Both the position numbers and the translations under genes were made by a program. Below the pieces are notes generated by a model that saw nothing but the letters and a program-made list of their open reading frames with translations, did not search any database and was not told where the DNA came from. From positions 1-35,367 of the IMG/VR virus record IMGVR_UViG_3300017917_001251: DNA of 35,367 nt; one strand, written 5' to 3'. Position 1 is the stretch's first letter, and each line of letters starts with the position of its first letter. Shown here one piece after another: positions 1 through 23,562 of the stretch. This DNA is from a virus.

Positions 1-969
1 AACCTCCGTACACTTGAGATCGCTTTTGATCGTACTTGTCAGTTTGCTTGCAGTTATTGCAATCCAGCTTTTAGCAGTAGCTGGGTACGCGATATTCGCA
101 GAAATGGACCGTATACCCAATTGGTATCCGATGGCCGCAACCACTTTACTCATACCCATGATAGCGCACAACTATATGATTATGGAGAGAACAATCCGTA
201 CGTTGATGCATTTTTTAAGTGGTGGGAGTCGGATCTACATAGAACACTACAAGAACTCAGAATCACAGGTGGAGAGCCCCTTATGTCCGCCCACACATGG
301 AAGCTCATTGACTGGTTTAAGACGAATAAGGGTAAGAGTAATACTCGCTTGGCGATTAATAGTAACCTCGGGACTGAGGTCGACATCGACCGTTTGCTTT
401 CCTCGATTGATGGACTTGAAATAGACTTATACACTTCAAACGAAGCCCTGGGACTGCAAGCAGAATACATCCGCGACGGGCTGGTGTGGGATGACTGGGC
501 CAACAATGTAGAACGCTTGTTGGATTCGGGGCAGTTCCGTGGCATACACGTTATGTGTACTATAAATGCCTTGTGCTTGACCACGTTGGATCAGTTATTA
601 GAAACAATGCTACAGTGGAAAACTGAATACGGGCGTGATGCCTTGAGCTTTACACTGAACATCCTGCGTTTCCCCAGCTTCCAAAGCCCCTTGGTGTTGC
701 CAGACACGCTGCGTACTCAATATCGAGATCAATTGCAGGCATGGTTAGATGCCAACAGGGATTCGGAATTCTTGCACGAGCATGAAATAAATCATTTGCA
801 ACGCTTGATTGATTATTTGGACATTGTAAAGACCCCGCATTCGGACGCATTTGATATGCCTAAATTACACAATGATTTCAAACAGTTCTATACACAGTAT
901 GATGCTCGTAGATCAAAAGACTTTGGCTCAGCATTTCCCCAATTAAAAGAATGGTATAATAGTTTATGA
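1..969 (+). CDS. radical SAM enzyme, 5' end cut by window edge
   Basis: The frame is open from base 1, so the true start lies outside the window. The first in-frame ATG (121) would remove the iron-sulfur motif and is not the start. The radical SAM motif CQFACSYC (CxxxCxxC) is at bases 37-60 and binds the 4Fe-4S cluster that cleaves S-adenosylmethionine. The SAM-contact motif GGEPL follows about 70 residues later, near base 272. No SPASM-like cysteines are visible after the core; any N-terminal domain is off the window. The stop overlaps the next start (ATGA, 966-969), so this is the visible first member of a four-gene radical SAM operon. Family membership is firm; substrate is unknown. Confidence 0.9.
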   Translation, partial: NLRTLEIAFDRTCQFACSYCNPAFSSSWVRDIRRNGPYTQLVSDGRNHFTHTHDSAQLYDYGENNPYVDAFFKWWESDLHRTLQELRITGGEPLMSAHTWKLIDWFKTNKGKSNTRLAINSNLGTEVDIDRLLSSIDGLEIDLYTSNEALGLQAEYIRDGLVWDDWANNVERLLDSGQFRGIHVMCTINALCLTTLDQLLETMLQWKTEYGRDALSFTLNILRFPSFQSPLVLPDTLRTQYRDQLQAWLDANRDSEFLHEHEINHLQRLIDYLDIVKTPHSDAFDMPKLHNDFKQFYTQYDARRSKDFGSAFPQLKEWYNSL

Positions 970-2630
970 AAATAGTCGGCACTATAGATCTTGCACAGTT
1001 CCCTGACCACGATTACGATGCTGGTAAAAAGTGGCTACGGAATCAATTAAAGAGCCTGCGAAAAAATTCTTTTGAATCTGATGAAAGAATAGTTGTTGCT
1101 CAGCAATGGGATTACTATGTAAAAGATCATGAAGAAACAGGCTTGATATTAAAAAATCTGCAGATCATGCTCAACGAAGAAGATATCACCAATTGCTTTG
1201 TGCAGTTACAGACCACTAACCCTGACATTGCACAAGAAGTACATGAGCTACAGCAAATTAACACAGATTCAAATCAAATAGAATTTCAAATAATTCCTGG
1301 ACCCTACCGTCGTGAGTTACTTGATCGTCATCCTTACAGCCGGGAAGAAGAATATCAGTACGGATCTGCCAATCCCATCAAGGTAAAACTTGCAAATTTG
1401 AGTCTCAAGAAACAATTTTTACTGAGTCAAAGCAAGACCTTCTGCATGTATCCCTGGGTGCATTTGCATGCTTGGCCCAACGGTCAAGCATATCCTTGCT
1501 GTCATGCTGAAGCAAGGCCCAGCTACGGTTCCACTAGAACACAATCTTTAAAAGAGATTTGGAACGGTCAGCCCATGAAAAAACTGCGTCAAGACATGCT
1601 GAATGAAACAGCCAACGCATCATGCCAACGCTGTTATGAACAAGAAAAGTCAGGATTCTTTTCAGGTAGACAAAGCAGTAACAAACACCACGGACACAAC
1701 ATTGATAGAATTGATCAAACCCAAGCTGACGGCCATTTGGATCAATTTGAAATGACCTACTGGGATATTCGTTTCAGTAATCTCTGCAACTTAAAATGCC
1801 GTAGTTGTGGACATATCTTTAGCAGCCAGTGGTATCAAGATCAAGCAAAACTAGCAGGCCCAGAATGGAAAGCTCGCAACACTGTGTTAAACTATGCAGG
1901 GCGCACTGAAACTGACATGTGGGAACAACTACTGCCACATTTAGACTACGTAGAACAGATCTACTTTGCCGGGGGCGAACCCTTGTTGATGGAAGAGCAC
2001 TACAACATCTTGAATGAGCTGGTCAAACGCGGCCGCTTTGATGTGCGGTTGATCTACAACACCAACTTCACTCATACTGATTTAAAGGGCAATAGTGTGT
2101 TTGACTACTGGAAACAGTTCAAGTCAGTGGCAGTGGGTGCCAGTTTAGATGCGTCAGGCGCACGTGGTGAATACATACGCAAAGGCACAGACTGGAGTGT
2201 GGTTGAACAAAATCGCAGAGACATGTTGAGTGTGTGCCCTGAAGTAGACTTTTATATCTCGCCCACACTGAGCATAATGAATGCCTGGCACCTGCCCGAC
2301 TTTCACCGTGACTGGGTATCAAAAGGGCTGTTGAAGGCCCAAGACTTGAACGTAAACATCCTGCAGGATCCTGCGCATTTTAGAATAGATATTGCCCCTG
2401 CTGAATACAAAAAGAAATTGGAACAAAAGTACCAAGAACATCTGGCTTGGTTGCAGGGCAAAGACCCATTGAATCGGGCCACACAAGGCTTTGAATCAGC
2501 CATGGTATTCATGAACGCCACGGACAACACACAACTAATAGATACTTTCTGGCGCAAAACTCATGAGCTGGACAGCATACGAAATGAAAAAATATTGGAT
2601 ATAATTCCAGAATTGGCAGCATTAAAATGA
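966..2630 (+). CDS. radical SAM protein with N-terminal SPASM-like cysteine domain
   Basis: A 554-aa protein. Residues 1-150 match nothing I recognise. A SPASM/twitch-like module follows (CMYPW at C160, paired C178-C179, W199, then CQRC at C220/C223), which would hold an auxiliary iron-sulfur cluster. The radical SAM core comes after it: CNLKCRSC (C274, C278, C281) and GGEP at 336-339. In most SPASM proteins the accessory domain follows the core; here it precedes it. It overlaps both neighbours by ATGA, implying translational coupling with the two flanking radical SAM genes. The auxiliary-cluster layout suggests a peptide or protein or other large substrate, but this is not shown by the sequence. 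Confidence 0.9.
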   Translation: MKIVGTIDLAQFPDHDYDAGKKWLRNQLKSLRKNSFESDERIVVAQQWDYYVKDHEETGLILKNLQIMLNEEDITNCFVQLQTTNPDIAQEVHELQQINTDSNQIEFQIIPGPYRRELLDRHPYSREEEYQYGSANPIKVKLANLSLKKQFLLSQSKTFCMYPWVHLHAWPNGQAYPCCHAEARPSYGSTRTQSLKEIWNGQPMKKLRQDMLNETANASCQRCYEQEKSGFFSGRQSSNKHHGHNIDRIDQTQADGHLDQFEMTYWDIRFSNLCNLKCRSCGHIFSSQWYQDQAKLAGPEWKARNTVLNYAGRTETDMWEQLLPHLDYVEQIYFAGGEPLLMEEHYNILNELVKRGRFDVRLIYNTNFTHTDLKGNSVFDYWKQFKSVAVGASLDASGARGEYIRKGTDWSVVEQNRRDMLSVCPEVDFYISPTLSIMNAWHLPDFHRDWVSKGLLKAQDLNVNILQDPAHFRIDIAPAEYKKKLEQKYQEHLAWLQGKDPLNRATQGFESAMVFMNATDNTQLIDTFWRKTHELDSIRNEKILDIIPELAALK

Positions 2631-3844
2631 ATATACCACACGATCGATTTTGCGTACTGCCCTGGGTCAGCTTGGAAGCCAGCCCCATTGGTACTGTGCG
2701 CCCTTGCTGTCTGGCCGATGATGAACTACTAGACGATTCAGGCAACAAGTTCTCATTGCTCACAGCAGACTTTGCCAGCATACAGAACTCACAGGCAATG
2801 ACACGCTTGCGTGAAGAGTTTTTAGCGGGCAAAAAGCCCCAGACCTGCAGAAAGTGCTGGAATGAAGAACGCAGCGGCCGCACAAGCAAGCGTATGCACA
2901 CCTTGGACAGAATGAAGCACATGGGCATCTCAGGAGAATGGACCACTGCGGCCAAACCGCTAATGTTCTTGGATCTCAAGCTGGGCAACATCTGCAACTT
3001 GAAATGCAGAATCTGTGGCTCATGGTCAAGCTCACAGTTTGCCACAGAAGAACTAAATGACATGCACCCAGACTCGGATAAGAAAAAGACATTTCCTTAT
3101 CAAATGCTACGTGCTGGCGCTTGGCCCAGAGAAAATCAAAAGTTCTGGGCAGAAATAGATTCAGTATTAAATGACATACGCTATATTGAATTCACCGGCG
3201 GCGAGCCATTTATGATAAAAGAACACTTTGCTATGTTACAGGGCATAGTGGATCGTGGTATTGCGCATCAAGTTGAAATACACTACAATACAAATGGCAC
3301 ACAGTTTCCCGAAGAAGCCGCAGAAATTTGGCGCCATTTTAAAACAGTGGAAATTGCGTTCTCTATAGATGATCTAAGAGCAAGATTTGAATATCAACGC
3401 ACCAATGCTGTGTGGACTGAAGTGGTATTCAATATTGATCGCTTTCGCTTGCTACGTGAAGACTATCCCAATATCCGCTTGCAATGCTGTAGCACAGTGA
3501 ATGTATTCAACGTGCATTATATTGATGAACTGGCGCACTGGATCGCTGAGCAGAACTTTGACTTTGTGTACTGGAACATGATGCATGATGCATGGTACTT
3601 TTCAATTGCCACGCTGCCCGCAGCAGCCAAGCAGCAGATCACTGCTCATTTACAGTCAGCAGATGTTCCCGCTCAATATCGCGAGGAATTTGATAGAATC
3701 ATTGATTTTATGAACAACGGTGCGTCAACAGATGGCATGATGTTGCGAATGAAAATACGGGACTTGGATCGCAAGCGCCAACAAAACATGCGAGATGTTG
3801 CACCAGAATTTGCAGCAATTATTGATTATGACTACCAAGCCTGA
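2627..3844 (+). CDS. radical SAM protein, SPASM-like module before the core
   Basis: A 405-aa paralogue of the flanking genes without the long N-terminal extension. The SPASM-like cysteines come first (C9 in CVLPW, C27-C28, then CRKC at C74/C77). The radical SAM motif CNLKCRIC (C123, C127, C130) and GGEPF (191-195) follow. The start overlaps the preceding stop by ATGA (2627-2630). The C-terminal 150 residues diverge from the paralogues and probably carry substrate specificity. Cofactor chemistry is firm from the motifs; substrate is unknown. Confidence 0.9.
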   Translation: MNIPHDRFCVLPWVSLEASPIGTVRPCCLADDELLDDSGNKFSLLTADFASIQNSQAMTRLREEFLAGKKPQTCRKCWNEERSGRTSKRMHTLDRMKHMGISGEWTTAAKPLMFLDLKLGNICNLKCRICGSWSSSQFATEELNDMHPDSDKKKTFPYQMLRAGAWPRENQKFWAEIDSVLNDIRYIEFTGGEPFMIKEHFAMLQGIVDRGIAHQVEIHYNTNGTQFPEEAAEIWRHFKTVEIAFSIDDLRARFEYQRTNAVWTEVVFNIDRFRLLREDYPNIRLQCCSTVNVFNVHYIDELAHWIAEQNFDFVYWNMMHDAWYFSIATLPAAAKQQITAHLQSADVPAQYREEFDRIIDFMNNGASTDGMMLRMKIRDLDRKRQQNMRDVAPEFAAIIDYDYQA

Positions 3845-5123
3845 CACAATGTGTTTGGCACCCTGGGTGCATACATATCTAAGCCCGCAGACAGAACGGC
3901 GCATGTGTTGTGCGTCACGGGAACCTGCACAGAACTTTGAACAGTATATAGATACCAAGAGTGGCACAGGCAAGTACATTCCCGTAACACTAGAACAGCA
4001 TTGGAATAGCGAGCACATGCAGAGTGTGCGCCGTAGAATGATGGCAGGAGAAACGCTGCCCGAATGTGAAGTATGCAATGATAAACTCCTTAACACAAGC
4101 GTCTATAGAGACTATTTCACGCACTTATTCTCCCATAAGTTATCTGAAATATTTGCTTCGACAACGCCGGAAGGGCGAACTACTATGGAACCAGTATCGT
4201 GGGACTATAGGTTTAGTAACTTATGTAATTTTAAATGTAGAATGTGTGGGGACATGCTCTCATCCTCTTGGGAAACAGAAGAGAAGTCTCACGCTATGGT
4301 TGATTGGTCGAATAGCAAGAACAATTGGATGGTACCCTCAGTCCGTAGTGCTATTTCGGCGTTTCAGGATAGTCAAATTGAGGCCGAATTTAGTGCTGCT
4401 GTCGAATCTCACAGAGTAGAAGAGATCTACTGGGTAGGTGGGGAACCGCTGATGTATGAACAGCATTGGCGCTACATGAAGCGAATTGTGGAGTTAGGCG
4501 ATGGACCCAAATTATACGCTAGATACAATACTAATCTGTCTAGAATTAGCCATAGGGGCGTGGATCTTTTTAGGGATATCCTCAGTAATATTAGAGATTG
4601 GCAAATATGTGCTAGCCTGGATGGCACTGAGCGAATCGGTGAATATATTCGTACAGGATTGGATTATGAACAGTGGTGTAGTAATTTTGAATCAGGATTA
4701 CGCTACGCAACAAACCCCAGACAAATGCGTATTGATTTTACCCTCACGCTGCCCGGAATGTTCGAGATTGGTGCAATGGAAAGATTATCACAGAAGTATG
4801 GGGTACAACTGTTAGCCAAAGTAATCTTTAGTTTCAGCCCGGATATTATAATGAGCCCACTGGCGTTACCGCGTGACTTGTTGGAGCCCTGGTTAGATGA
4901 ATTGATTGCAGAATGCACAACAAACCCCATGCGGGAGTTGTTGACACAATTAAAAACACGTCCAACGTTTGAGGAGCAATGGCCTGATCAATATCAAGCC
5001 GGGCTGTCAAAAGGCCGGGCTCGTGTGTTAAAATTAGAACAAATAAGAACACAGTCTGTAACAATGACTGACATCTTGGGCGCACGCCCAGAAGTATTGA
5101 AATGGTGGATGAAAATTGCTTGA
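3828..5123 (+). CDS. radical SAM protein, fourth in tandem
   Basis: The upstream in-frame ATG at 3795 is rejected. Starting at 3828 gives an N-terminus collinear with the preceding paralogue (Cys at residue 9 followed by LAPW; paired Cys at 27-28) and a 17-bp overlap with its stop. The 431-aa protein has SPASM-like C9, C27-C28 and CEVC (C80/C83). The radical SAM motif CNFKCRMC (C133, C137, C140) and GGEPL (204-208) follow. Its gene overlaps the next by 8 bp. It shares the unusual accessory-first domain order. Confidence 0.88.
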   Translation: MTTKPDTMCLAPWVHTYLSPQTERRMCCASREPAQNFEQYIDTKSGTGKYIPVTLEQHWNSEHMQSVRRRMMAGETLPECEVCNDKLLNTSVYRDYFTHLFSHKLSEIFASTTPEGRTTMEPVSWDYRFSNLCNFKCRMCGDMLSSSWETEEKSHAMVDWSNSKNNWMVPSVRSAISAFQDSQIEAEFSAAVESHRVEEIYWVGGEPLMYEQHWRYMKRIVELGDGPKLYARYNTNLSRISHRGVDLFRDILSNIRDWQICASLDGTERIGEYIRTGLDYEQWCSNFESGLRYATNPRQMRIDFTLTLPGMFEIGAMERLSQKYGVQLLAKVIFSFSPDIIMSPLALPRDLLEPWLDELIAECTTNPMRELLTQLKTRPTFEEQWPDQYQAGLSKGRARVLKLEQIRTQSVTMTDILGARPEVLKWWMKIA

Positions 5124-6156
5124 TGAAATTGTAATTACATTACGGGACAAAACAGATCACTTGCTGAATGTTTACATAGACGTAGCTGACAACAGTCTCA
5201 GTCGTAAATGGCTGGCTGCACTGAATCATTTGCTGGGCTACCAATATCATTTGGAAAAGAATTACTGCTGGCTGGGCTGGGCCGAAGGCGATCGTTCAGC
5301 CGAATACATTTGTCAGCAGATCAATCACAGCATTGCAGCCATCAATGACTCAGGGCTAGACTACAAAATACAGTGCGATCCCTACACAGTTCAAAACACC
5401 ATCACAGCTGACCTAGGCATTGATCATGACAGAATGAATCACTTGCATCGCTACTTCGAAGATCTGCAGGGCTGGTCAGGAGGCATCAGCAACCACTACA
5501 ATTCAGCAGATCCTGCTACACGCTGGCACATACGCCAGTTAAACTTGTTGTGTCATGAACTAGAAAGTCTTGTGTTGAGCATGCGCAAGCTGGCAAAAGC
5601 ACCAGAATGGCGCAGGCCAAGCCAGCTGATGTGTTGGCTAAATGCTCCACGTTTTGAATTAGAGGAATCGGATTATGATCTCTTTGGTATCGATACTATT
5701 AATCGTAGTTTGGGTGGTGTGTATGTGGGAGTCAACAAAGCAGTGGGCAAACACCATTGGGAAGTGTTCAATGACGAAGGAAGAGATAGCAGAATTGGCG
5801 AGCTTGTTACTAGCTCCCTTCGTTCGCAGACTGAGGCCGCTGGCGACTTTGATATCGAATGGGCCCGCGACCCTGGTGCATTTCCGTGGCAGATCAAACA
5901 ACTGGCTGAATTCCGTACCTGGCTTCGGGCAAACGGATTTGACCCTGAGGACAAAGCACTCACAATTGGGCACCCGCAAGTGGGTCAAGTCAATCTTGCT
6001 AAAAGTTTTGGTACCACAGACTATCAAGACATATGGCGCCAATTGGCCCAACACCAGGACGTATATAAAATAAGTACTAGCAGTGCTGACGCTACATATG
6101 AGTACCGCTGGAGTGACGCAGATTATGCTGCCCGGCAAATAAAGGAATTATCATGA
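5116..6156 (+). CDS. unknown protein in the radical SAM operon
   Basis: 346 aa, starting at TTG (5116) and overlapping the preceding stop by 8 bp. No in-frame ATG lies near the 5' end, so the TTG start is the best choice and suggests coupled translation. It is rich in Trp, His and acidic residues and lacks a signal peptide or membrane segment. I see no catalytic motif I can name. Its place between radical SAM enzymes and the carbamoyltransferase suggests a partner or a substrate-binding protein for that pathway. This is inference from context only. Confidence 0.75.
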   Translation: MLDEIVITLRDKTDHLLNVYIDVADNSLSRKWLAALNHLLGYQYHLEKNYCWLGWAEGDRSAEYICQQINHSIAAINDSGLDYKIQCDPYTVQNTITADLGIDHDRMNHLHRYFEDLQGWSGGISNHYNSADPATRWHIRQLNLLCHELESLVLSMRKLAKAPEWRRPSQLMCWLNAPRFELEESDYDLFGIDTINRSLGGVYVGVNKAVGKHHWEVFNDEGRDSRIGELVTSSLRSQTEAAGDFDIEWARDPGAFPWQIKQLAEFRTWLRANGFDPEDKALTIGHPQVGQVNLAKSFGTTDYQDIWRQLAQHQDVYKISTSSADATYEYRWSDADYAARQIKELS

Positions 6157-6254
6157 ACTGGATCAAACAAATTTGGGCAAGAATTACCCTGGAATATCGC
6201 TATCGTAAAAAGCTAAAAGAACTACGCAAACGAGACCCATTTATCTACAAATGA
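6153..6254 (+). CDS. 33-aa basic peptide
   Basis: Begins MNWIKQIWAR and ends RDPFIYK, with a Lys/Arg-rich amphipathic middle. It overlaps the upstream stop (ATGA, 6153-6156) and the downstream start (ATGA, 6251-6254), so it fills the exact space between two genes. AAAGGA sits about 7 bases before the ATG. Perfect stop-start coupling on both sides is the main support that it is translated. Function is unknown. Confidence 0.7.
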   Translation: MNWIKQIWARITLEYRYRKKLKELRKRDPFIYK

Positions 6255-7735
6255 AACATATTCTAGGATTTTCAGCAGGCTTTCATGATGCTGCTGTGAG
6301 CTTGATCAACAGTGACGGCGACATTGTGTTTGCCGGGCACAGCGAACGCTACAGCAAAATCAAAAATGACGCCAACATACATCCGGATCTTGTGGCCGAG
6401 CTGTATGGCTACACAATCGCTGATGTGGCCTACTATGAACGTCCCTTGATCAAGCAGCTACGTCAATTGTATTCAGGGCAGGGCATAGAGTGGAACAAAC
6501 TCCGAGTGGGGCAAATTGTGCGCGATCAATTACGGCCCAAGTTACTGGGCGATGCGCGGCTGCACAGTTACAATCATCATCGCTGTCATGCTGCGGCAGG
6601 ATTTCAAACATCGCCGTTTGATCGTGCCACTGTTGTGGTAATTGATGCTGTGGGCGAGTTTGAAACTGTTACTATCTGGGGAGCTGAATATGATCGAAAA
6701 GGTAGAGCTGTTTACCATAAACTTTGGCAGCAAAACTATCCGCATTCAATTGGATTATTTTACAGTGCAGTTACTGGCCGCGTTGGCCTACGCCCACTAG
6801 ACGAAGAATACATCTTGATGGGCATGGCTGCTTACGGCAACCGTGATGCAAGAATTCGAATGCAGTTGGACTTGATTGAAAACGAGTGGGAAATTAGATT
6901 TCGAGAAAACTTACACACAGGCCTGGCCACAAAATATCTCAGCGATTGCTCAGACATGGACCTAGCTGCTGGTGCACAGGATCTAGCAGAAGATCTAATA
7001 CTGAATGTAATGACTCGTGCTAAAAAGTTTCACTGGAGCAACAATCTTGTGTACATGGGCGGCGTGGCTTTGAACTGTGCTGCCAATCGTAGAATAGGAG
7101 GTTACTTTGACAATATTTGGATTATGCCAAACCCTGGTGATGCTGGCAGTAGCCTTGGTGCTGCCGCTTTGGCTCATGGGCATAGAATTAACTGGACTAA
7201 TGCTTATCTCGGGCATGATATACCTGGCGATTATCCTGTTAATGACATTTTGGATGAGTTGGTTGTTCGGAAAATTGTGGGAGTGGCTTCCGGAAGAGCC
7301 GAGTTCGGCCCCCGCGCACTGGGAAACCGTTCGCTGCTTGCAGACCCTAGAGGCAGCGAGATCAAGGAGAAAGTAAATGAAATCAAACGTAGACAACAGT
7401 TCAGACCCTTTGCGCCAGTCATTTTGGAGGAACTGGTTGATCAGTACTTTGATATGCCTCGTGGCTTCAATAACAGCAGGTATATGCAAACAGTCGCCCA
7501 TTGTCGGCGCCCTGACTTATTTCCTGCTATCGTTCACGCTGACGGCACTAGTCGCGTACAAACTGTTCCACCGGATGGAAGCGGAATCCGAAAATTACTC
7601 GAAAAATGGTATGTAATGACTGACTGCCCTATGTTGTTAAACACCAGTTTAAACATACGTGGGGAACCCATGGTCAACAACCGATCAGATGCGGATCGCT
7701 TTGAACAGTTGTATGGCGTTCGGGTTTGTAGTTGA
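6251..7735 (+). CDS. carbamoyltransferase, NodU/CmcH (TobZ-like) family
   Basis: 494 aa. The family transfers carbamoyl from carbamoyl phosphate, via carbamoyladenylate, to a hydroxyl on a sugar or natural product. The N-terminal Kae1-like half starts ILGFSAGFHDAAVSL and has the metal-binding HHRCHAAAG at 109-117 and YMGGVALNCAANRR near 268-281. The C-terminal half has FGPRALGNRSLLADPR at 352-367 and LNTSLNIRGEPMV near the end, both family hallmarks. Length is at the short end of the family. The start overlaps the 33-aa gene by ATGA, and the 3' end overlaps the convergent - strand gene by 62 bp. It is the clearest pointer that the cluster makes a carbamoylated small molecule or sugar. Confidence 0.92.
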   Translation: MKHILGFSAGFHDAAVSLINSDGDIVFAGHSERYSKIKNDANIHPDLVAELYGYTIADVAYYERPLIKQLRQLYSGQGIEWNKLRVGQIVRDQLRPKLLGDARLHSYNHHRCHAAAGFQTSPFDRATVVVIDAVGEFETVTIWGAEYDRKGRAVYHKLWQQNYPHSIGLFYSAVTGRVGLRPLDEEYILMGMAAYGNRDARIRMQLDLIENEWEIRFRENLHTGLATKYLSDCSDMDLAAGAQDLAEDLILNVMTRAKKFHWSNNLVYMGGVALNCAANRRIGGYFDNIWIMPNPGDAGSSLGAAALAHGHRINWTNAYLGHDIPGDYPVNDILDELVVRKIVGVASGRAEFGPRALGNRSLLADPRGSEIKEKVNEIKRRQQFRPFAPVILEELVDQYFDMPRGFNNSRYMQTVAHCRRPDLFPAIVHADGTSRVQTVPPDGSGIRKLLEKWYVMTDCPMLLNTSLNIRGEPMVNNRSDADRFEQLYGVRVCS

Positions 7736-8204
7736 GTTGTAACTGAATATTGTGCTCGATCATGGGCACATAGTGATCAGGCATGGCTCGCCCGTTAAAG
7801 CGTTGATAAAAGTCCTGTAAGAATTTTACATCAAACAAGCTGGAGAACCATATTACATGTTTGAATCTAATATCCAGCATGCGATATTGCTTTTCCCAGT
7901 TTTCTACATTAACAACGGAATCAAGGCCAGACAGTCCTTTGGCAGTGGCCAATCTAGATACTGTGCTATAATCACTGGGCGCAAGTTTTATCTTGATACT
8001 GTGTTCTCTATGTTTCAATATAGAAGTTGCGTTTAGTTCAGGATCGTGTGGGTTGACTTTGCCAAGCCCGTGCATTTTGTGATAATACAAATCCTGTGTT
8101 ATTACATACTGTTGGTAGCAATGTTCAATTTGATCCAACAGTATTGCAGCCAAGAAATCGCCCCGAGAACCAGGGCAATAAAATATCAACAGATCCTGAT
8201 GCAT
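7674..8204 (-). CDS. unknown protein with N-terminal GSRGDFL motif
   Basis: 176 aa. The N-terminus LLIFYCPGSRGDFLAAILL is a hydrophobic strand followed by a Gly-Ser loop and a helix, reminiscent of a nucleotide or PAPS-binding loop such as in sulfotransferase-like proteins. The same pattern (IDFHGSTHGHFLEYV) opens the protein encoded at 14508-15320. No other motif supports an assignment. It begins immediately after the amidinotransferase-like stop (TAA then ATG, no gap) and its 3' end lies inside the convergent carbamoyltransferase gene. Confidence 0.7.
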   Translation of the reverse strand: MHQDLLIFYCPGSRGDFLAAILLDQIEHCYQQYVITQDLYYHKMHGLGKVNPHDPELNATSILKHREHSIKIKLAPSDYSTVSRLATAKGLSGLDSVVNVENWEKQYRMLDIRFKHVIWFSSLFDVKFLQDFYQRFNGRAMPDHYVPMIEHNIQLQLNYKPERHTTVQSDPHLIGC

Positions 8205-10413: not shown

Positions 10414-11500
10414 TCAACATATCCTTTAGTTCTGCCCATAGAACTTCTTCAAAGCCGCCATTGTAGAAATGATTCCAGTTGTGTTTGACAATGTCGCTGG
10501 CGCTGTGAAATATTGCATTGCGATATTCGGGTCCTAGTTCTTCTAACAGTTTAAGAGTACGAGCAACGGCAGCAATACGTTCGCTGTCATCTTCAATGTC
10601 GTCGTAACTCTCATCCCAAAAACTTCCAAATGTTTTAAATCCATAACTGCGCAAATACTTTAAACTACCTTTGGTGCCTACCAATACAAAAGGCATGCCC
10701 ATGGCAATGGGTTTAAAAGTCTTTTCAGTGATATGATGTCTGCGTCCGGTGGCCACAGTTTCAGTAACCAAGTACAACATACTGTCGGCACACTGATCAA
10801 ACAGGCTAAGCCAGCATGAGTGCATGGGGTGATCAGTTTCGCCAGCAAAGTTAATGGGCAACTGCTGTGCGGCAAACACCTGTTCTATGTCTGGGTATTT
10901 GCTTTTTAACGGCGCAATGGCATCGTGTATGCTGATGTTCTCTGCAGGGCACGTTTCTGGACAGCTGATATGATTGTTAGTCATGCCCAGACGGAATATC
11001 CAGTACAGCATTTCCAATCTATGCTGGCGCTCGCCAGCAATGATTCGATTGGGTGCAATAAATGTCCGGGTAGGTCTGCGTTGATCAATGGGCTGAATCA
11101 AAAACGTTTTGTCATATCCACGATACCAATCCAGTGCTGCCCAGCCATGAAAGAAATAGTAGTAGCTTTTCCATCCAAAACGAGCACACAAGGCATCAAC
11201 GTTGTCGCTGTCACGTTCACTGGTGCAGATAGCACCTATCTGTTGATCGTTCTTCCAATGCAGATCTCCGTTGTCGGCTCGAACCTTTTCAAATGTGGCC
11301 ATGTGGTAGTTCAAATGTATTGGCTCTTGATCAAAAAAGAATATATAATTGTGTTCGTGAACATTTTTATCGCCATAACCAATCACACTGTCGGGGTCAC
11401 TACGCCCAAATGGGTCACACATCAAGACTCTAGTGCCTGGTCGATTGGCCCGTATCCAGGGCCAAAAAGTATTGTTGTAAATTTCGTCTATTCTAAGCAT
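10391..11500 (-). CDS. glycosyltransferase-like protein, paralogue of its neighbour
   Basis: 369 aa with HITEKTFKPIAMGMPFVLVG at 256-275, the same block as in the adjacent protein. The shared extension (about 30 residues on, a YGFKTFGSFWDESYD-like segment against YQVFDDILDNSYD) supports common ancestry. The ATG shares the CATG at 11498-11501 with the divergent + strand gene, so the two start codons interlock. No clear ribosome-binding site is seen upstream. The likely role is sugar transfer in the same pathway or surface-modification block. Confidence 0.72.
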   Translation of the reverse strand: MLRIDEIYNNTFWPWIRANRPGTRVLMCDPFGRSDPDSVIGYGDKNVHEHNYIFFFDQEPIHLNYHMATFEKVRADNGDLHWKNDQQIGAICTSERDSDNVDALCARFGWKSYYYFFHGWAALDWYRGYDKTFLIQPIDQRRPTRTFIAPNRIIAGERQHRLEMLYWIFRLGMTNNHISCPETCPAENISIHDAIAPLKSKYPDIEQVFAAQQLPINFAGETDHPMHSCWLSLFDQCADSMLYLVTETVATGRRHHITEKTFKPIAMGMPFVLVGTKGSLKYLRSYGFKTFGSFWDESYDDIEDDSERIAAVARTLKLLEELGPEYRNAIFHSASDIVKHNWNHFYNGGFEEVLWAELKDMLNGIESSS

Positions 11501-14500
11501 GTTTGATATTTTTTATTCTGGAGTAAAGCCCAATTTGTTTGCACACGAACGTGCAGCAGATAGTATTGAGCATGCACAGCAGTTGAGTCGCACCAGGTAC
11601 TTTTGGTGGGTAAACTACTTATGTGATTATAGCACGTTCGATTGGGATTTCCAACCTGTGCCTTGGCAAGCAGAATACACACACTCATGGCCGTCAGCCT
11701 GGGATCAAGTGTTAGGTGCTGCCTTGGTGCCCCGACATGCTGAGTCATTACAATACTATGAACACAAACAAACAATACCGCCGCGACACTACTCAGAACA
11801 TTATAAAACTCTAAAGCATTGTGAGTTTGATTACTCTTGGACACCGCATCCATGGGACCCACCTTACAAGTATGTGTTTGGTAACCAACACTGGGACGGT
11901 ACTATCATGCCCACTGTCACATACACAGTGCCCGGTGCCACTGAACAAAAGTTTTTAGACTGGCCTGTAGCACAGTTAACAGCCAACAGAACCAACTGGG
12001 AAATACTTGAGCCCATAGATGAAGATGCCTGGGATTGGACTTGGGTGCCAAACCCCAAAGACCCTCCTTACATCTATGTGTTTGGCAATCAGTGGAATCC
12101 ACCAGAGTTCAAGGCCAGTGTGCGTTATGTTGTACCCGGAGCAACAGAAGTCAAGTACATGGATCGTCGCACAAAACGACTACCACAAAAGCATTTGTTC
12201 ACATCTAAAATTGCAGTGGCAGAATTTGATTGGTCCTGGGAACCAAATCCGTTTGATCCACCCTACATCTATGTGTTTGGCAATCAATGGTATTCTGCAG
12301 AAGTAGAACCCACTGTGGAATATCATGCGCCAGGCGCCACTGAACGCAAGTATGTGTCGGAAATCATAGCTCGTGTGCAACCTAACACCGCGCACTACTA
12401 TCAACACTGTGCAATAGAATCTTTTGATTATAGTTGGCATCCAGATCCCGGAGACCCACCTTATATCTATGTGTTTGGTAATCAGTGGCATGCTGCCGAA
12501 ATCATGCCTACAGTAGAGTATCGTGTGCCCGGTGCTACTGAAAAGAAATACATGGACCACCCTCGTGCAACACTGGTTCAACGGCACGACAACCACTGGC
12601 ACACTGTAATAGATTGTGAGTGGGACTATAGCTGGGTGCCTGATCCTGGAGATCCGCCCTACATCTATGTGTTTGGCAATCAATGGCATGCCGCAGAGAT
12701 CATGCCTACAGTTACCTACACTGTGCCTGGCGCAACAGAAAAGAAGTACATGGACTATCCTCGAGCTCGACTGCTTGAAGATATGATGTATTGGAACAAC
12801 CGTAGTGAGCATAGATATCACTTTGACTATAGCTGGAAGCCTGATCCTGGAGAGCCGCCTATGATCTATGTGTTTGGTAACCAACACTGGCCAGCAGAGA
12901 AAATGCCCACAGTGGAATGGATGCACCCTGACATCACAGAACACAGTGCCATCAAGTACATGGACTATCCTACAGCAACATTGCTACCAAATAAAACATT
13001 ATGGCATTTGCCCGCAGGTGTGCGTGAAGAACAAGTAGACTTTTCTTGGGTACCAGATCCAGGCGAACCTCCTTACATCTATCAGTTTGCCACACAGTGG
13101 CAAAAGACTGGCGGTCCGCAGTATCATGTGCCAGGTGCCACAGAAACCAAGTACCTTGAGCATGTGGAAGTCAAGATTGAAACTGTTACAGTACCTGTTG
13201 TGGAAATTGATCACTTGGATGGTAATACAGGTAACATTGCCAACACAGTCAAACGCATACGCTATTTTGACAACTACAGAGATACCTTGATTAGACTGTC
13301 CAAGAGCTTGGTTGGCGAGCATGAGTTTGTTTGGGTGTGTAGCAGTATCTGTGATTACACAGACTTTGATTTCAGTTGGCACCCAGAAAAATGGCAAAGC
13401 ACAATGCTTCATGTGTTTGCCAGTGATGAACAAAAGTTTGGGGACACATTCTACATGCATGTTCCTACCTTTGCTGCTAGAGCAGAGAAGAAAGCCTTGT
13501 TGGAATGGTATTCGGTAAACTATGTCCCACGCATACGTGTGCCGCGGCGCCCTGTGCCTGTGATACAACACAGTGAGGACAGTCAAGTTGATGCAGTTAA
13601 AAACACAGACTGGGCAGGACCGTTAGCGTTGTTTACCACAACAGATTATGTGGACCAAGCCTTGGTCACTGTTCCGTTATGGCGTCAAGAAACCAAAACT
13701 ATTACACCTTTGAGTGTAGGCGCAACGTCGGTGATTGTGCCCAAGGCATCTCGCGGCGATATCAAAACACAGTTATATGACTACCCTTACATAGACAAAA
13801 CACATCGTGTGCTAAAAGACCAACCCTTGGACATTGTGTTTATCAGCAATGGTGAAAACGAAGCAGAGTTCTTGTATCAATGGTTAGTTGACAGTGTTGG
13901 TGGTAACTCATTGATCAACAATAGCTATAGAATCAAACGTGTGCAAAATGTCAAAGGTCGTGTGGCAGCATATCATGCAGCCGCTGAAGCAAGTACTACT
14001 CCTTGGTTCTTCGCAGTGTTTGGTAAGTTGCAGGTCAGCAAACAGTTTCCTTGGGATTGGCAACCGGATCGTATGCAACAGCCCAAGCACTACATCTTCC
14101 ATGCAAAGAATCCAATAAACGGTTTGGAGTATGGTCACCAGGCCATGATTGCATATAACAAGAAGTTGGTGTTAGAAAACACCGGAGTGGGATTAGACTT
14201 TACACTGGATCAAGCACACGAAGTTGTTCCTATTCTAAGCGGACAAGCAAATTATTACACAGACAATTGGATGTGTTGGAGAACTGCATTTAGAGAATGT
14301 ATCAAACTCCAAGCCAGTTTACCAGATGTAGAAAACGAATATAGACTCAACCAATGGCTTGAAGTAGATTTTAGTGCTGGACAATGGAGCATGAAAGGTG
14401 CCGAAGATGCTGTAGAGTTCTATGAGTCTGTAAATGGCGATCCCACCGAACTCCGCAAGAGCTACGAGTGGGATTGGCTTGCAAGTTATGCGTTTATGAA

Positions 14501-14519
14501 GCGTAACTTAGTTCCGTAA
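11499..14519 (+). CDS. 1006-aa protein with 66-residue aromatic repeats and glycosyltransferase-like C-terminus
   Basis: Residues about 110-560 hold seven tandem units of about 66 residues. Each has the core W-x-P-[DN]-P-x-[DE]-PPYIYVFGNQW followed by a PGATExKY[ML] strand. Degenerate copies appear before (FDWDFQPVPW) and after (FDFSWHPEKW). The C-terminal 230 residues start LDIVFISNGENEAEFLYQWL and contain NVKGRVAAYHAAAEAS and TTPWFFAVFGK, resembling the nucleotide-binding end of a family 2-like glycosyltransferase. No DxD motif is obvious, so enzyme activity is uncertain. Its start interlocks with the divergent gene at CATG, and its 3' end overlaps the convergent gene by 12 bp. It may be a multivalent glycan binder or a transferase; function is not established. 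Confidence 0.85.
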   Translation: MFDIFYSGVKPNLFAHERAADSIEHAQQLSRTRYFWWVNYLCDYSTFDWDFQPVPWQAEYTHSWPSAWDQVLGAALVPRHAESLQYYEHKQTIPPRHYSEHYKTLKHCEFDYSWTPHPWDPPYKYVFGNQHWDGTIMPTVTYTVPGATEQKFLDWPVAQLTANRTNWEILEPIDEDAWDWTWVPNPKDPPYIYVFGNQWNPPEFKASVRYVVPGATEVKYMDRRTKRLPQKHLFTSKIAVAEFDWSWEPNPFDPPYIYVFGNQWYSAEVEPTVEYHAPGATERKYVSEIIARVQPNTAHYYQHCAIESFDYSWHPDPGDPPYIYVFGNQWHAAEIMPTVEYRVPGATEKKYMDHPRATLVQRHDNHWHTVIDCEWDYSWVPDPGDPPYIYVFGNQWHAAEIMPTVTYTVPGATEKKYMDYPRARLLEDMMYWNNRSEHRYHFDYSWKPDPGEPPMIYVFGNQHWPAEKMPTVEWMHPDITEHSAIKYMDYPTATLLPNKTLWHLPAGVREEQVDFSWVPDPGEPPYIYQFATQWQKTGGPQYHVPGATETKYLEHVEVKIETVTVPVVEIDHLDGNTGNIANTVKRIRYFDNYRDTLIRLSKSLVGEHEFVWVCSSICDYTDFDFSWHPEKWQSTMLHVFASDEQKFGDTFYMHVPTFAARAEKKALLEWYSVNYVPRIRVPRRPVPVIQHSEDSQVDAVKNTDWAGPLALFTTTDYVDQALVTVPLWRQETKTITPLSVGATSVIVPKASRGDIKTQLYDYPYIDKTHRVLKDQPLDIVFISNGENEAEFLYQWLVDSVGGNSLINNSYRIKRVQNVKGRVAAYHAAAEASTTPWFFAVFGKLQVSKQFPWDWQPDRMQQPKHYIFHAKNPINGLEYGHQAMIAYNKKLVLENTGVGLDFTLDQAHEVVPILSGQANYYTDNWMCWRTAFRECIKLQASLPDVENEYRLNQWLEVDFSAGQWSMKGAEDAVEFYESVNGDPTELRKSYEWDWLASYAFMKRNLVP
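11823..13170 (+). repeat. seven in-gene tandem repeats, about 200 bp each
   Basis: The conserved FD[YW]SW cores begin near 11826, 12028, 12226, 12424, 12622, 12823 and 13036. Spacing is 198-213 bp, always a multiple of three. Copies 4 and 5 are nearly identical in protein (PDPGDPPYIYVFGNQWHAAE in both) but differ at several codon third positions, indicating selection on the protein rather than very recent duplication. Confidence 0.9.
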
Positions 14520-15320
14520 TTTAACAAGTTGTTCCTGTATAATATTATAAATTTTTTGGGTGTCGGACGGATACTCTGCATGTTCGAATAGTATACCATT
14601 GTATAAACGACACACTTTGGATAGATTATAATTCAACCATGCTTGTTCGACAATGGTACAATCAACTGTTGTAAGTGTGTTTGCAAAAATATCATTTAAT
14701 AAATTATTGCATTTAATGTAAGACTGATAGCCTTGATTCACTTTTATAAATTCACTCCAGAGATCAAATAGAGATTGATCTGGGAAGAATGTTTGATTTA
14801 AAAATGTAGCAAGATTGGATAAAGCTACGCAAAAGTCTTTGAAAGAAAAGAAAGCATCAAAAGGAAATTCAAATATTGGATTGTTGATTTGCTTAAACTC
14901 TTTGTAGTGATTCGCAAAAGTGGCTCGTTCGTTAAATTTGCTATACCAATCGTTTCTTAGATACACTGCATTGTTGCGCACAGTTTCGTTAATGGCGAGC
15001 ATTTGCCTTTCAAAACCAACATCGCCTGCTTTATACATTAGATTAGTTAATGCAATAAAAAACATATTATCATTGTTGGTATCGATTACAATTCGAATAA
15101 TAATATCGCGATTTCTGATTACAAGATTATATTCTGGACTTGAAAAATGTCCGCAGTGAATCATTCGATCACGATAATAGTTTTCGTCGGGGGCATGGGC
15201 TGAATATGTGGGAGGTTTGAATATGCTTGACTTACTCGGTGTAGTTTGCATGACATAAACATTAGCAACATATTCAAGAAAGTGCCCGTGAGTACTGCCG
15301 TGAAAGTCAATTTTAATCAT
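14508..15320 (-). CDS. unknown protein with N-terminal GSTHGHFLEY motif
   Basis: 270 aa from the ATG at 15320, which overlaps the aminotransferase stop (ATGA, 15317-15320). A longer reading from 15422 would run 100 bp into that gene and is rejected. The N-terminus IDFHGSTHGHFLEYV resembles a strand-loop-helix ligand site and the start of the protein at 7674-8204. The rest is rich in Asn, Tyr and Phe, and the gene is more A+T-rich than its neighbours. It probably belongs with the aminotransferase and epimerase; function is unknown. Confidence 0.7.
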   Translation of the reverse strand: MIKIDFHGSTHGHFLEYVANVYVMQTTPSKSSIFKPPTYSAHAPDENYYRDRMIHCGHFSSPEYNLVIRNRDIIIRIVIDTNNDNMFFIALTNLMYKAGDVGFERQMLAINETVRNNAVYLRNDWYSKFNERATFANHYKEFKQINNPIFEFPFDAFFSFKDFCVALSNLATFLNQTFFPDQSLFDLWSEFIKVNQGYQSYIKCNNLLNDIFANTLTTVDCTIVEQAWLNYNLSKVCRLYNGILFEHAEYPSDTQKIYNIIQEQLVKLRN

Positions 15321-16417
15321 TTTGTTATTTCTAACACCGACTTGATAATGTATTCTACTTCCGAATCTGTAAGCTCGGGATAGATAGGTAAACTCAGCGC
15401 ACGACGAGTTAACGAATAACATGCACCCAACATGTCCGGCGCAGGATACTGACGATAAGCAGAGTGCTCGGGCAGCGCATGTTCGTAATGGACTTTGGTC
15501 TCAATGCCCCGCTCTGCTAGCCGGGATTGTACTTCATCCCTGTTGTCTACTTCAACCACAAACTTATGGAACGCATGATTGTGAAAGTTTGTGTCATCGA
15601 TCAAACAACGTAGATTTGCATCCTTGAACCCGTCTATGTATTGCAACGCAATGTCTTGACGACGATGTTGCCATGAATCTATGTGTGCTGCCTTGATCAT
15701 CATAGTAGCACAATCCAGTTCACTCATGCGTGAGTTAGATCCTGTACCTCTGTGGCCAGTGTGTTTGCCATTGTCTCTGTAGTCTTTTGCAAAATCAGCA
15801 AGATCATCTACATCAGTGACCACAGCACCGCCATTGCCATGGCAGGCCAAGTTCTTCATAGGGTCAAAGCTAATGGCAGCACCGTTGCCAATGCGCTTGC
15901 AATCAGCAGCCAGCCAGTGTTGTGCTGCATCTTCAATTACTAATGTACTATCTTTGATCCATCGTTGCCAATGTCGTACACTCATGTGGTGAGTTACGGC
16001 TGTACCATACAAACCCACTACTACAATGGCTTGATAACTTAGGTTGTGTGGGATAGTGTCGGGATTGATCAATCCATAGTTGTCTACGTCAGCAAAGTAA
16101 ACGTCCCAGCCTGCACGAACGAATGCATTGGCTGTAGCAACATAGCTCACAGCAGGCAACACAACAGTGGGCGGGTTTATGTTCTCAAGTTGTATCCAAT
16201 AGGCAGCAAGTATCTCTAGAGCCGTGGTGCCCGAGTGGCATGTCACAGCATGCTTGACACCATTCTTGTTGGCCAGCCAACTTTCAAATGCCTGTGTGTA
16301 CTGCCCGTTCATAAGCTGACCAGAGCTTAACACCTGGTCAGTTGCATACAGTATTTCTTCGCGTAGATTTTTATACTGTCTTTGAAGACCAGTAAATGCT
16401 ATTTGAAAGCCACTCAT
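15317..16417 (-). CDS. DegT/DnrJ/EryC1-type PLP sugar aminotransferase
   Basis: 366 aa from the ATG at 16417 (MSGFQIAF), with GAAGGA upstream; an in-frame ATG at 16444 is the alternative. The family aminates nucleotide-linked keto-sugars. Visible landmarks are SGTTAL (62-67) for the PLP phosphate, EDAAQ (162-166) for the ring, and SFDPMKNL with the PLP-linking lysine at K188. GGAVVTD follows. The C-terminus has the usual HYEHALPEHSAY segment. The gene overlaps the epimerase gene by 47 bp, so the two are co-expressed. Together they would make an aminosugar. Confidence 0.92.
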   Translation of the reverse strand: MSGFQIAFTGLQRQYKNLREEILYATDQVLSSGQLMNGQYTQAFESWLANKNGVKHAVTCHSGTTALEILAAYWIQLENINPPTVVLPAVSYVATANAFVRAGWDVYFADVDNYGLINPDTIPHNLSYQAIVVVGLYGTAVTHHMSVRHWQRWIKDSTLVIEDAAQHWLAADCKRIGNGAAISFDPMKNLACHGNGGAVVTDVDDLADFAKDYRDNGKHTGHRGTGSNSRMSELDCATMMIKAAHIDSWQHRRQDIALQYIDGFKDANLRCLIDDTNFHNHAFHKFVVEVDNRDEVQSRLAERGIETKVHYEHALPEHSAYRQYPAPDMLGACYSLTRRALSLPIYPELTDSEVEYIIKSVLEITK

Positions 16418-17342
16418 AATATTTCTGGAATCCTTCTTCAACATCTACTTTGGGATCGTAACCTAAAATAACTCTGGCACGGTCGATGTTTAATGCGCCA
16501 CGGCTAGGAAAGTCTGCATCTTTATCGCGACATTCGATGGTGCCCTTGCCCACAATCTTAACAATCATTTCGGCGGCGTCAAGCAAGCTAACGGAATGCG
16601 ATTTGGTGATGTTGTAAGTATTGTTTCGCGCCATGATGCGAGTCGCAGCCGAAACAATTCCATCCGCAGCGTCATCGACATACGTAAAGTCAAGAGTTTC
16701 TCCCGCTCCGTTGACTCGGAGAATTCCACCACGCATCGCGGTGAGCATAAACTTTGCCACAACACGATCCTCCACATCCAAAGGGCCGTATACAGCACTC
16801 GGGCGTATAATCGCATAATCAAACGCACCTCTACGGTGGTAGTCTTTGACAAGGTCTTCTCCTGCTAATTTCATGATGCCGTACTGCCCAATAGGGTGAC
16901 AATCGTCATCTTCTAACACTTGGTCTTCAAAGTCGCCGTAGACCATTGAGCTGCTAATATATACCACCCGCTCAACTCGGTGTTTTTTGGCACTCTCGCA
17001 AATGTTGATCAACCCCTCCATCATTACCCGCGCACCATTGGCAGGATTTGCATTGACAACTTTTTGTCTTGGGAAGCTGGCCATGTGAATAACGACCTCG
17101 GGCAAGGTCTTTTCAAATGCTTTGTCTACAGCTTCAGCATCTGCAATGTTTTCTAAAAATACCAATGTATCCGGAGCAATCTTTTTTTGACGTTCGGTCA
17201 TTAGATAATGCAGCTCATCTTCTGGAACAATCCCGTAGTTGGTGCAGTTGTCAATAATGCTGACATCATGCCCCATGCCTTGCAATTTGTTAACAACATT
17301 GTGTCCAATGAGGCCCATGCCTCCAGTTACTAAAATTTTCAT
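16371..17342 (-). CDS. NAD-dependent nucleotide-sugar epimerase/dehydratase
   Basis: 323 aa of the extended short-chain dehydrogenase family (GalE/RmlB-like). The Rossmann motif GGMGLIG (G7, G10, G13) binds NAD. The catalytic set is S132 in YISSSMVYG with Y154 and K158 in QYGIMK. RPSAVYGP and a C-terminal sugar-binding region follow. It overlaps the upstream small gene by ATGA (17339-17342) and the aminotransferase by 47 bp. Whether it is an epimerase or a 4,6-dehydratase cannot be told from these motifs alone. Confidence 0.9.
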   Translation of the reverse strand: MKILVTGGMGLIGHNVVNKLQGMGHDVSIIDNCTNYGIVPEDELHYLMTERQKKIAPDTLVFLENIADAEAVDKAFEKTLPEVVIHMASFPRQKVVNANPANGARVMMEGLINICESAKKHRVERVVYISSSMVYGDFEDQVLEDDDCHPIGQYGIMKLAGEDLVKDYHRRGAFDYAIIRPSAVYGPLDVEDRVVAKFMLTAMRGGILRVNGAGETLDFTYVDDAADGIVSAATRIMARNNTYNITKSHSVSLLDAAEMIVKIVGKGTIECRDKDADFPSRGALNIDRARVILGYDPKVDVEEGFQKYYEWLSNSIYWSSKTV

Positions 17343-23536: not shown

Positions 23537-23562
23537 GTGGGTCCTTTGTTGTTTATGTGTAT

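What the first reader, a model, noticed from the sequence alone, without database searches (positions are those of the whole stretch)
1..17342. Candidate phage-borne pathway for a carbamoylated/amidinated aminosugar or surface modification
Radical SAM enzymes, a NodU/CmcH carbamoyltransferase, an amidinotransferase-fold protein, a DegT aminotransferase, an epimerase/dehydratase and two or three glycosyltransferase-like proteins lie within 17 kb. This combination of chemistry is otherwise typical of aminoglycoside-like natural products. In a phage it could decorate host or virion glycans, or DNA. The product is not inferable from sequence.
Basis: inference. Interest (0 to 1): 0.85.

Follow-up and report, generated by a model that had tools for sequence, protein, structure and literature searches.

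The report
Phage sugar-tailoring cassette beside tail-fibre genes
A large family of T4-like phages carries, in a fixed order, a set of enzymes resembling those that make decorated amino sugars in antibiotics and bacterial coats; the set lies just downstream of the tail-fibre genes, so these phages probably decorate their own particles or their host's surface with unusual sugars, but the product is not known.

Summary
The window (a 35,367-base IMG/VR virus fragment) has four consecutive twitch-domain radical SAM genes, a NodU/TobZ-type O-carbamoyltransferase, an L-arginine:glycine-amidinotransferase (AGAT)-family protein, two homologous GT-B-fold proteins, a DegT aminotransferase and an SDR nucleotide-sugar enzyme. 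Clustering is not chance: carbamoyltransferase, U346 and rSAM4 accompany the amidinotransferase in every contig with enough flank (66/66, 64/64, 64/64). In two longer relatives the cluster continues past the window's left edge (a fifth rSAM, more GT-like genes) and directly follows tail-fibre/baseplate genes on the same strand. It is modular: 13 contigs lack the amidinotransferase and carry other GT394 alleles; DegT type and tailoring enzymes (FkbM methyltransferase, PIG-L, GFO/IDH, more rSAMs) vary. Best reading: a late-region glycan-tailoring cassette making a carbamoylated, optionally amidinated amino sugar. Acceptor unknown: virion protein favoured slightly over host surface; DNA disfavoured (no hydroxymethylase, QueC or TGT found). 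No reaction was demonstrated. Sugar genes in host-recognition clusters of T4-like aquatic phages, including radical SAM cassettes, are already published, so this is a new variant of a known kind. An unexpected member is a protein whose length varies in 66-residue steps between phages.

The parts
1..969 (+). rSAM1, N-twitch radical SAM protein, 5' end cut by the window edge
   Evidence: NF033640 208 bits; C13xxxC17xxC20; full-length copies 441-504 aa in relatives
966..2630 (+). rSAM2, 554 aa, with an extra N-terminal region of about 155 aa
   Evidence: NF033640 418 bits; CxxxCxxC in 47/47 orthologues
2627..3844 (+). rSAM3, 405 aa
   Evidence: NF033640 337 bits; CxxxCxxC in 64/64 orthologues
3795..5123 (+). 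rSAM4, 442 aa
   Evidence: NF033640 288 bits; CxxxCxxC in 46/46 orthologues
5116..6156 (+). U346, unknown protein modelled as a cyclophilin-like barrel with a helical insertion
   Evidence: AlphaFold pLDDT 87; best VIA Z 8.7 to cyclophilins over 139 residues, rmsd 3.4; no PDB Foldseek hit with E<0.001; present in 64/64 contigs
6251..7735 (+). NodU/CmcH/TobZ-type O-carbamoyltransferase
   Evidence: Carbam_trans_N and _C; novobiocin carbamoyltransferase E 5e-50, GdmN, TobZ; HHRCHAA and GRAEFGPRALGNRS
7674..8204 (-). U176, unknown; position of accessory genes that differ between phages
   Evidence: no Pfam or PHROG hit; variable position
8205..9245 (-). AGAT-family amidinotransferase (AMID)
   Evidence: profile hit to 2jdx E 7e-19, StrB1, HsvA, SxtG; H192, D194, C331 invariant; pN/pS 0.13, lowest of the cluster
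9229..10413 (-). GT394, GT-B-type glycosyltransferase-like protein
   Evidence: homologous to GT369 by profile; alleles track the presence of AMID
10391..11500 (-). GT369, GT-B-fold glycosyltransferase-like protein
   Evidence: AlphaFold pLDDT 90; T4 BGT Z 11.3, T4 AGT 10.9, alpha-1,3-fucosyltransferase 10.7 (ties)
11499..14519 (+). REP, 1006 aa: 66-aa repeats plus a C-terminal domain; role unknown
   Evidence: orthologue lengths on a 66-aa ladder; C-terminal domain homologous to a 308-aa protein upstream in relatives; present in 61/61 contigs
14508..15422 (-). U304, unknown, patchy in relatives
   Evidence: no Pfam or PHROG hit
15317..16444 (-). DegT/DnrJ/EryC1/StrS aminotransferase
   Evidence: Pfam E 2e-64; nearest solved: scyllo-inositol transaminase, DesV-type, QdtB, WbpE; FxPxK in 36/36
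16371..17342 (-). SDR nucleotide-sugar epimerase-like enzyme
   Evidence: Epimerase E 1e-40, phrog_540 E 3e-55; GGMGLIG, SSSMVYG, YGIMK

Best explanation
The 17 kb is most of a phage glycan-tailoring cassette in the late (virion) region of a T4-like genome. Inferred steps: the SDR and DegT enzymes convert a host nucleotide sugar into an amino sugar; the AGAT-family enzyme moves an amidino group from arginine to the amine (only in phages that carry it); the carbamoyltransferase carbamoylates a sugar hydroxyl; the radical SAM enzymes do C-H chemistry on sugar or acceptor; the GT-B proteins transfer the sugar. Conserved core: rSAMs, U346, carbamoyltransferase, GT369, REP. Exchangeable part: AMID with its GT394 allele, DegT type, accessory methyltransferase, deacetylase, dehydrogenase and extra rSAM genes, which would change the sugar from phage to phage. 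Acceptor, my commitment: a phage tail-fibre or other virion protein (about 0.4), then host surface glycan (about 0.3). Shown: families, folds, conserved order, position next to fibre genes in relatives, cassette exchange. Inferred: every reaction, the product, the acceptor.
For: Family assignments. Conserved cluster. Purifying selection, pN/pS 0.13-0.40 with near-saturated synonymous sites. In relatives G002 and G007 the block runs on the same strand straight after virion structural genes; the matching block in Pseudomonas phage PA5oct carries mass-spectrometry notes for virion proteins and has no such cluster. Modular exchange: AMID presence needs 3 changes on the GT394 tree (shuffled mean 11.4, 0 of 500 as low) but 6 on the carbamoyltransferase tree. 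Accessory sugar-tailoring genes: FkbM methyltransferase, PIG-L, GFO/IDH beside a divergent DegT, extra rSAM/SPASM. Parallel sets elsewhere: Pelagibacter phage Mosig (carbamoyltransferase, rSAMs, sugar aminotransferase, epimerase), marine virus AG-345-D19 (AGAT-like + carbamoyltransferase + N-twitch rSAM), Vibrio phage K566 (five N-twitch-like rSAM genes among GT-like genes). No cluster protein in the window has a predicted membrane segment, which leans to a cytoplasmic acceptor.
Against: No reaction or substrate is shown. N-twitch rSAMs have no known chemistry; SPASM/twitch enzymes often act on peptides. No gene for making the starting nucleotide sugar was found in the window. At the AGAT Asp254 position AMID has an invariant Ser146 in the profile alignment, so amidinotransfer may be altered. 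The link AMID-GT394 may be mere physical linkage (the genes overlap by 17 bp). Outside the core, rSAM and GT genes are not significantly close (7 of 30, P 0.09). Virion versus host surface rests on position only.
Confidence: 0.68

Rival explanations
1. The cluster modifies the host's surface glycan (O-antigen or core) to block adsorption of competing phages or of progeny, as published for sugar genes of pelagimyophages.
For: Published reading of glycosyltransferase-rich host-recognition clusters (PMC7029224); PIG-L, GFO/IDH, DegT and FkbM are common in O-antigen loci (established knowledge). It is the second half of my main statement, so its probability is contained in that one.
Against: No membrane protein (flippase, GtrA/B-like, acyltransferase) in the window cluster. 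The rSAM to carbamoyltransferase block follows tail-fibre genes on their strand.
Confidence: 0.3
2. The radical SAM enzymes mature a protein or peptide (RiPP-like modification of a virion protein or of the repeat protein REP); the sugar enzymes are a side branch.
For: Four to five N-twitch rSAMs in a row. REP is a repeat protein rich in aromatic residues with a variable number of copies. U346 is cyclophilin-like and a marine homologue sits beside fibre-like genes without the rest.
Against: REP lies on the opposite strand to its neighbours, apart from the rSAM operon, and its C-terminal domain is homologous to a separate protein with an Asp-Gly-Asp motif. No short precursor gene or peptidase was seen. 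DegT, SDR, carbamoyltransferase and AGAT families act on small molecules or sugars.
Confidence: 0.12
3. The GT-B proteins glycosylate the phage's own hypermodified DNA.
For: The closest folds to GT369 include T4 DNA glucosyltransferases BGT (Z 11.3) and AGT (10.9).
Against: Fucosyltransferase (10.7) is tied with them. No thymidylate-synthase-family hydroxymethylase, QueC or TGT in 14 related records, although FolE- and QueE-like genes exist in G002. The cluster is in the structural region.
Confidence: 0.06
4. Unrelated auxiliary genes that collected in a hypervariable region without a joint pathway.
For: Insertions and exchanges are frequent. T4-like phages keep such regions (PMC7029224). Cyanophage LPS genes have been suggested to be stuffer DNA (PMC3037559).
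Against: Same order in 60+ contigs while synonymous sites are near saturation; gene starts and stops overlap within operons.
Confidence: 0.08

Closest known systems
Host recognition cluster (HRC) of pelagimyophages and cyanomyophages (PMC7029224)
   Same: T4-like aquatic phages; sugar and glycosyltransferase genes, and radical SAM cassettes, mixed with tail-fibre genes in a variable island
   Different: Here the order is fixed across many contigs, with four to five N-twitch rSAMs, an AGAT-family enzyme and the repeat protein. That paper does not mention carbamoyltransferase or aminotransferase, and amidinotransferase was not among the searched terms. VrlC/gp14 boundaries were not tested here
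Pelagibacter phage Mosig EXVC030M, genes 82-96 (MT647606)
   Same: Carbamoyltransferase beside rSAM genes, sugar aminotransferase, methyltransferase and epimerase, some 11 kb from a tail-fibre gene
   Different: The three 'molybdenum cofactor' proteins tested do not match N_Twi_rSAM; no AGAT-like gene or repeat protein annotated there; carbamoyltransferase only 29% identical
LPS gene clusters and 'Nol' carbamoyltransferases of cyanophages P-SSM2, S-SSM7, S-CAM1 (PMC3037559)
   Same: Phage-borne NodU-like carbamoyltransferase in phages with surface-sugar genes
   Different: 27-30% identity for P-SSM2 and S-CAM1; no amidinotransferase or N-twitch array reported
Aminoglycoside-type pathways (StrB1, TobZ, BtrN, scyllo-inosose aminotransferase)
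   Same: The same set of enzyme families: amidinotransferase, carbamoyltransferase, DegT transaminase, twitch rSAM (BtrN recalled, not tested)
   Different: No cyclitol synthase was found in the window (no such family hit); nucleotide-sugar SDR and GTs instead; phage-borne
Synechococcus phage S-SCSM2R 'glycine amidinotransferase'
   Same: AGAT-like gene in a phage sugar region with KdsA, KdsB and GTs
   Different: About 30% identical; no N-twitch rSAM or carbamoyltransferase annotated beside it

Membership tests
N_Twi_rSAM (NF033640) | Score above the curated cut-off over the whole model, with CxxxCxxC | tested here: met
   208, 418, 337 and 288 bits vs 170 (the first lacks its N-terminus by truncation); motif in every orthologue
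N_Twi_rSAM (NF033640) | N-terminal twitch/SPASM cysteines | tested here: met
   Five upstream Cys in rSAM2-4 and SPASM hits in front of the rSAM domain (rSAM4 below the Pfam cut-off); not testable in truncated rSAM1
L-Arg:Gly amidinotransferase family | Homology over the length | tested here: met
   E 7e-19 to AGAT, 4e-14 to StrB1, in 2-3 stretches spanning residues 5-345
L-Arg:Gly amidinotransferase family | Catalytic Cys407, His303, Asp305 | tested here: met
   C331, H192, D194 invariant across phage homologues and aligned with GGGFHC and HIDATF
L-Arg:Gly amidinotransferase family | Catalytic Asp254 | tested here: inconclusive
   By extending the alignment the position falls on invariant Ser146; invariant Asp160 is near; needs a structure
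NodU/TobZ O-carbamoyltransferases | Carbam_trans_N plus Carbam_trans_C, HHxxHAA motif | tested here: met
DegT/DnrJ/EryC1/StrS aminotransferases | PLP-binding Lys in the family motif | tested here: met
   FDPMK; FxPxK in 36/36 orthologues
dTDP-glucose 4,6-dehydratase | Curated cut-off and Asp-Glu pair before YxxxK | tested here: not met
   119 bits vs 365; SSSMVYG
GT-B glycosyltransferases | GT-B fold | tested here: met
   Model pLDDT 90; best Z 10-11 all GT-B enzymes; GT394 by homology
Phage DNA glucosyltransferase system (T4 type) | Hydroxymethylase that makes the acceptor base | tested here: inconclusive
   No PF00303 in 14 records while controls rang, but records may be fragments; Tet/JBP search had no positive control
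gtrABC-type seroconversion cassette | Membrane flippase and membrane GT | tested here: not met
   No hydrophobic segment in the 1-17.7 kb proteins (Kyte-Doolittle only)
Host recognition cluster of T4-like phages | Variable island with tail-fibre genes in the structural region | tested here: met
   In relatives G002 and G007 next to fibre/baseplate genes; the window itself ends before them
Cyclophilins (U346) | Cyclophilin fold and peptidyl-prolyl isomerase active site | tested here: inconclusive
   Z 8.7, borderline by the tool's own note; active site not tested

The most novel reading that the evidence does not exclude
These phages make an aminoglycoside-like sugar, carbamoylated and guanidinylated, with radical SAM steps, attach it to their own tail fibres, and vary it between lineages by swapping amidinotransferase-GT cassettes; the 66-residue repeat protein is a dedicated part of that system. 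This would be a new kind of virion glycosylation.
Probability: 0.2. Interest if true: 0.8.

Novelty: new variant of a known kind. Interest (0 to 1): 0.5.

Why it matters
Sugar genes in aquatic T4-like phages are usually counted one by one as auxiliary genes. Here a whole conserved enzyme series with fixed order and exchangeable modules can be named, which makes its product a testable target. If the acceptor is the virion, it would give a way in which phages change their outer chemistry by cassette exchange. It also gives a context for two groups without known chemistry, the N-twitch radical SAM proteins and the phage AGAT-like proteins; the latter are easily annotated as glycine amidinotransferase, which by this context may be misleading.

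Tried and rejected
(1) Bacterial cell-wall locus: rejected; phage gene content, and no bacterial relative of the amidinotransferase by the pattern scan. (2) DNA hypermodification: weakened, not excluded. (3) rSAM-GT proximity elsewhere in the genomes as independent support: not significant. (4) Fold of U346: no PDB Foldseek match below E 0.001; cyclophilin likeness is borderline. (5) REP and the 308-aa protein as GT-A enzymes: recalled likeness only; no Pfam hit, and for the 308-aa protein no PDB hit worth trusting; the Asp-Gly-Asp of the 308-aa protein is replaced in REP. The hhalign E-value is inflated because REP sequences entered both profiles; the independent support is tblastn 27% identity, E 4e-17. 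(6) GT394 profile against PDB gave only weak lipocalin noise. (7) Tandem repeats at DNA level in REP: none found; the repeat is visible only in protein. (8) Literature: no paper in the held library combines these families in a phage; moraphages (PMC12619734) looked at and not shown to be the same lineage. (9) Host: not determined.
Full report
WHAT IS THERE. The window is a whole IMG/VR record of 35,367 bases, linear, with no completeness estimate shown. From 1 to 17,342 the genes are: four consecutive radical SAM genes (+), U346 (+), a carbamoyltransferase (+); then on the other strand U176, an amidinotransferase-like gene (AMID), GT394, GT369; then REP (+); then U304, DegT and SDR (-). Within each strand block genes overlap or nearly touch: 4, 4, 50 and 8 bp along the rSAM-U346 row, 17 and 23 bp along AMID-GT394-GT369, 106 and 74 bp at the called starts along U304-DegT-SDR.

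FAMILIES. All four rSAMs pass the N_Twi_rSAM cut-off and have CxxxCxxC; rSAM2-4 also have the five upstream cysteines of an N-terminal twitch domain. The carbamoyltransferase has both domains and matches the novobiocin, GdmN and TobZ enzymes. AMID has no Pfam hit, but a profile of its orthologues matches L-arginine:glycine amidinotransferase, StrB1, HsvA and SxtG. Cys331, His192 and Asp194 are invariant even in marine homologues about 30% identical; the AGAT Asp254 position appears as an invariant serine in the profile alignment, with an invariant Asp160 close by. That is a lead, not a proof of altered chemistry. DegT is nearest to scyllo-inositol transaminase, DesV-type, QdtB and WbpE enzymes. 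The SDR is epimerase-like. GT369 is modelled at pLDDT 90 as a GT-B fold; T4 DNA glucosyltransferases and a GT10 fucosyltransferase are tied as best matches, so the fold says nothing about the acceptor. GT394 is homologous to GT369.

CONSERVATION. A scan of viral contigs found 144 places that encode a relative of AMID; the best 80, 80-91% identical, were kept. In those with enough flank, carbamoyltransferase was present in 66/66, U346 64/64, rSAM4 64/64, rSAM3 62/63, GT369 67/67, GT394 69/70, REP 61/61, SDR 55/56, DegT of the same type 48/57. This set is chosen by AMID, so a second set was anchored on U346: carbamoyltransferase 58/58, rSAM3 and rSAM4 72/72, AMID 44/58. Some of the 14 without AMID run out of sequence behind accessory genes. 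Synonymous sites are near saturation and pN/pS is 0.13 for AMID and 0.24-0.40 for the others. The cluster has thus been held together by selection over long divergence.

MODULARITY. In 13 contigs the gene next to the carbamoyltransferase is a divergent GT394 allele and AMID is absent. On the GT394 tree the presence of AMID needs 3 changes (shuffled mean 11.4, 0 of 500 as low); on the carbamoyltransferase tree it needs 6. AMID and its GT therefore move together. Physical linkage alone could do this, so it supports but does not prove that GT394 uses the amidinated sugar. DegT and SDR are also exchanged in some contigs, in three cases for a divergent DegT next to a gene of the same size class (291-293 aa), of which the one tested is a GFO/IDH-type dehydrogenase. 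Between carbamoyltransferase and AMID different phages carry an FkbM methyltransferase, other methyltransferases or further rSAM/SPASM genes; a PIG-L deacetylase occurs beside the alternative SDR-DegT pair in L066.

PLACE IN THE GENOME. Two longer relatives were read, G002 (149 kb) and G007 (221 kb). G002 has a portal, late sigma factor, SbcCD-like (gp46/47) genes and a baseplate wedge protein. The cluster continues past the window's left edge with further GT-like genes and a fifth rSAM. The sixteen relatives searched have 5 to 12 N-twitch rSAMs each. Next to the cluster, on the same strand, are virion structural genes. By portal the best named match is Pseudomonas phage PA5oct and its group, 51% identity. 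PA5oct has a homologous fibre block with mass-spectrometry notes for virion proteins and no such cluster after it.

INDEPENDENT PARALLELS. Marine virus AG-345-D19 has an AGAT-like gene, a carbamoyltransferase (49%) and an N-twitch rSAM (below the cut-off, cut by the contig end) within 8 kb. Pelagibacter phage Mosig has a carbamoyltransferase beside rSAMs, a sugar aminotransferase and an epimerase, though the rSAMs tested are not of the N-twitch family. Vibrio phage K566 has five rSAM genes like those here, two tested and above the N_Twi cut-off, among GT-like genes. A marine homologue of U346 (51%) lies beside fibre-like genes without the rest.

REP. Orthologue lengths fall on a ladder of 66 residues (circular concentration 0.87 at period 66; 99.9% of null maxima below 0.55), from 662 to 1784 aa. 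The unit carries FDYSWxPDPxDPPYIYVFGNQW...VPGATEKKYMD. The C-terminal domain is homologous to a separate 308-aa protein further up the cluster in G002 and G007. REP always lies opposite to its neighbours. Its role is unknown.

READING. The enzyme set fits an amino sugar that is carbamoylated and, in most phages of this group, possibly amidinated, and transferred by GT-B enzymes. The position after fibre genes and the lack of membrane proteins in the window cluster make me favour a virion protein as acceptor over the host envelope, by a small margin. DNA is unlikely but not excluded. The idea that sugar and rSAM cassettes sit in the host-recognition cluster of T4-like aquatic phages is published (PMC7029224), as are carbamoyltransferases and LPS clusters in cyanophages (PMC3037559). 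What I did not find described is this fixed combination and its modular exchange; the held library is open-access only, so that absence is weak.

LIMITS. No chemistry was tested. Habitat and host were not determined. Contigs from neighbouring samples may be near-copies, so counts of contigs are not counts of independent lineages.

Noticed in passing
window 11499-14519 and its orthologues in L002-L081: REP protein with 66-aa repeats whose number varies from phage to phage (lengths 662-1784 aa on a 66-aa ladder), head-to-head with GT369 and always on the opposite strand. No known family.
   Followed up: partly
   Followed up: partly
G002 (L089:9111-9845, L089:17616-18461): FolE and a QueE-like radical SAM gene in a near relative, but no QueC or TGT found in any of 14 related records; what the 7-deazaguanine branch would serve is unclear.
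   Followed up: partly
G003, G008, G009, G012, G013, G016: Further AGAT-like paralogues (30-39% identical) elsewhere in the same phage genomes, and a second AGAT-like gene between DegT and SDR in L016 and L027.
   Followed up: no
window 22226-25891: DUF2201 putative metallopeptidase/VWA protein with a phage MoxR-like AAA ATPase (phrog_1297), and an SPFH/Band-7 protein at 20884-21696: an uncharacterised ATPase-VWA pair, kept in relatives.
   Followed up: no
window 30271-31275: Phosphate-binding PstS homologue (phrog_5385) next to a protein with six predicted membrane segments at 31498-32157.
   Followed up: no
window 33978-34586: Four tRNA genes in a row (Arg-CCT, Arg-TCG, Thr-GGT, Gly-GCC).
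   Followed up: no
L065:18280-20715: An 812-aa fusion of two N-twitch radical SAM proteins.
   Followed up: no
L042, L059, L066, L067, L003, L188, L086: Several small proteins that look SGNH-hydrolase-like by eye are inserted at different points of the cluster and beside marine homologues; the two tested (L003:13913-14683, L042:4045-4707) have no Pfam match.
   Followed up: no
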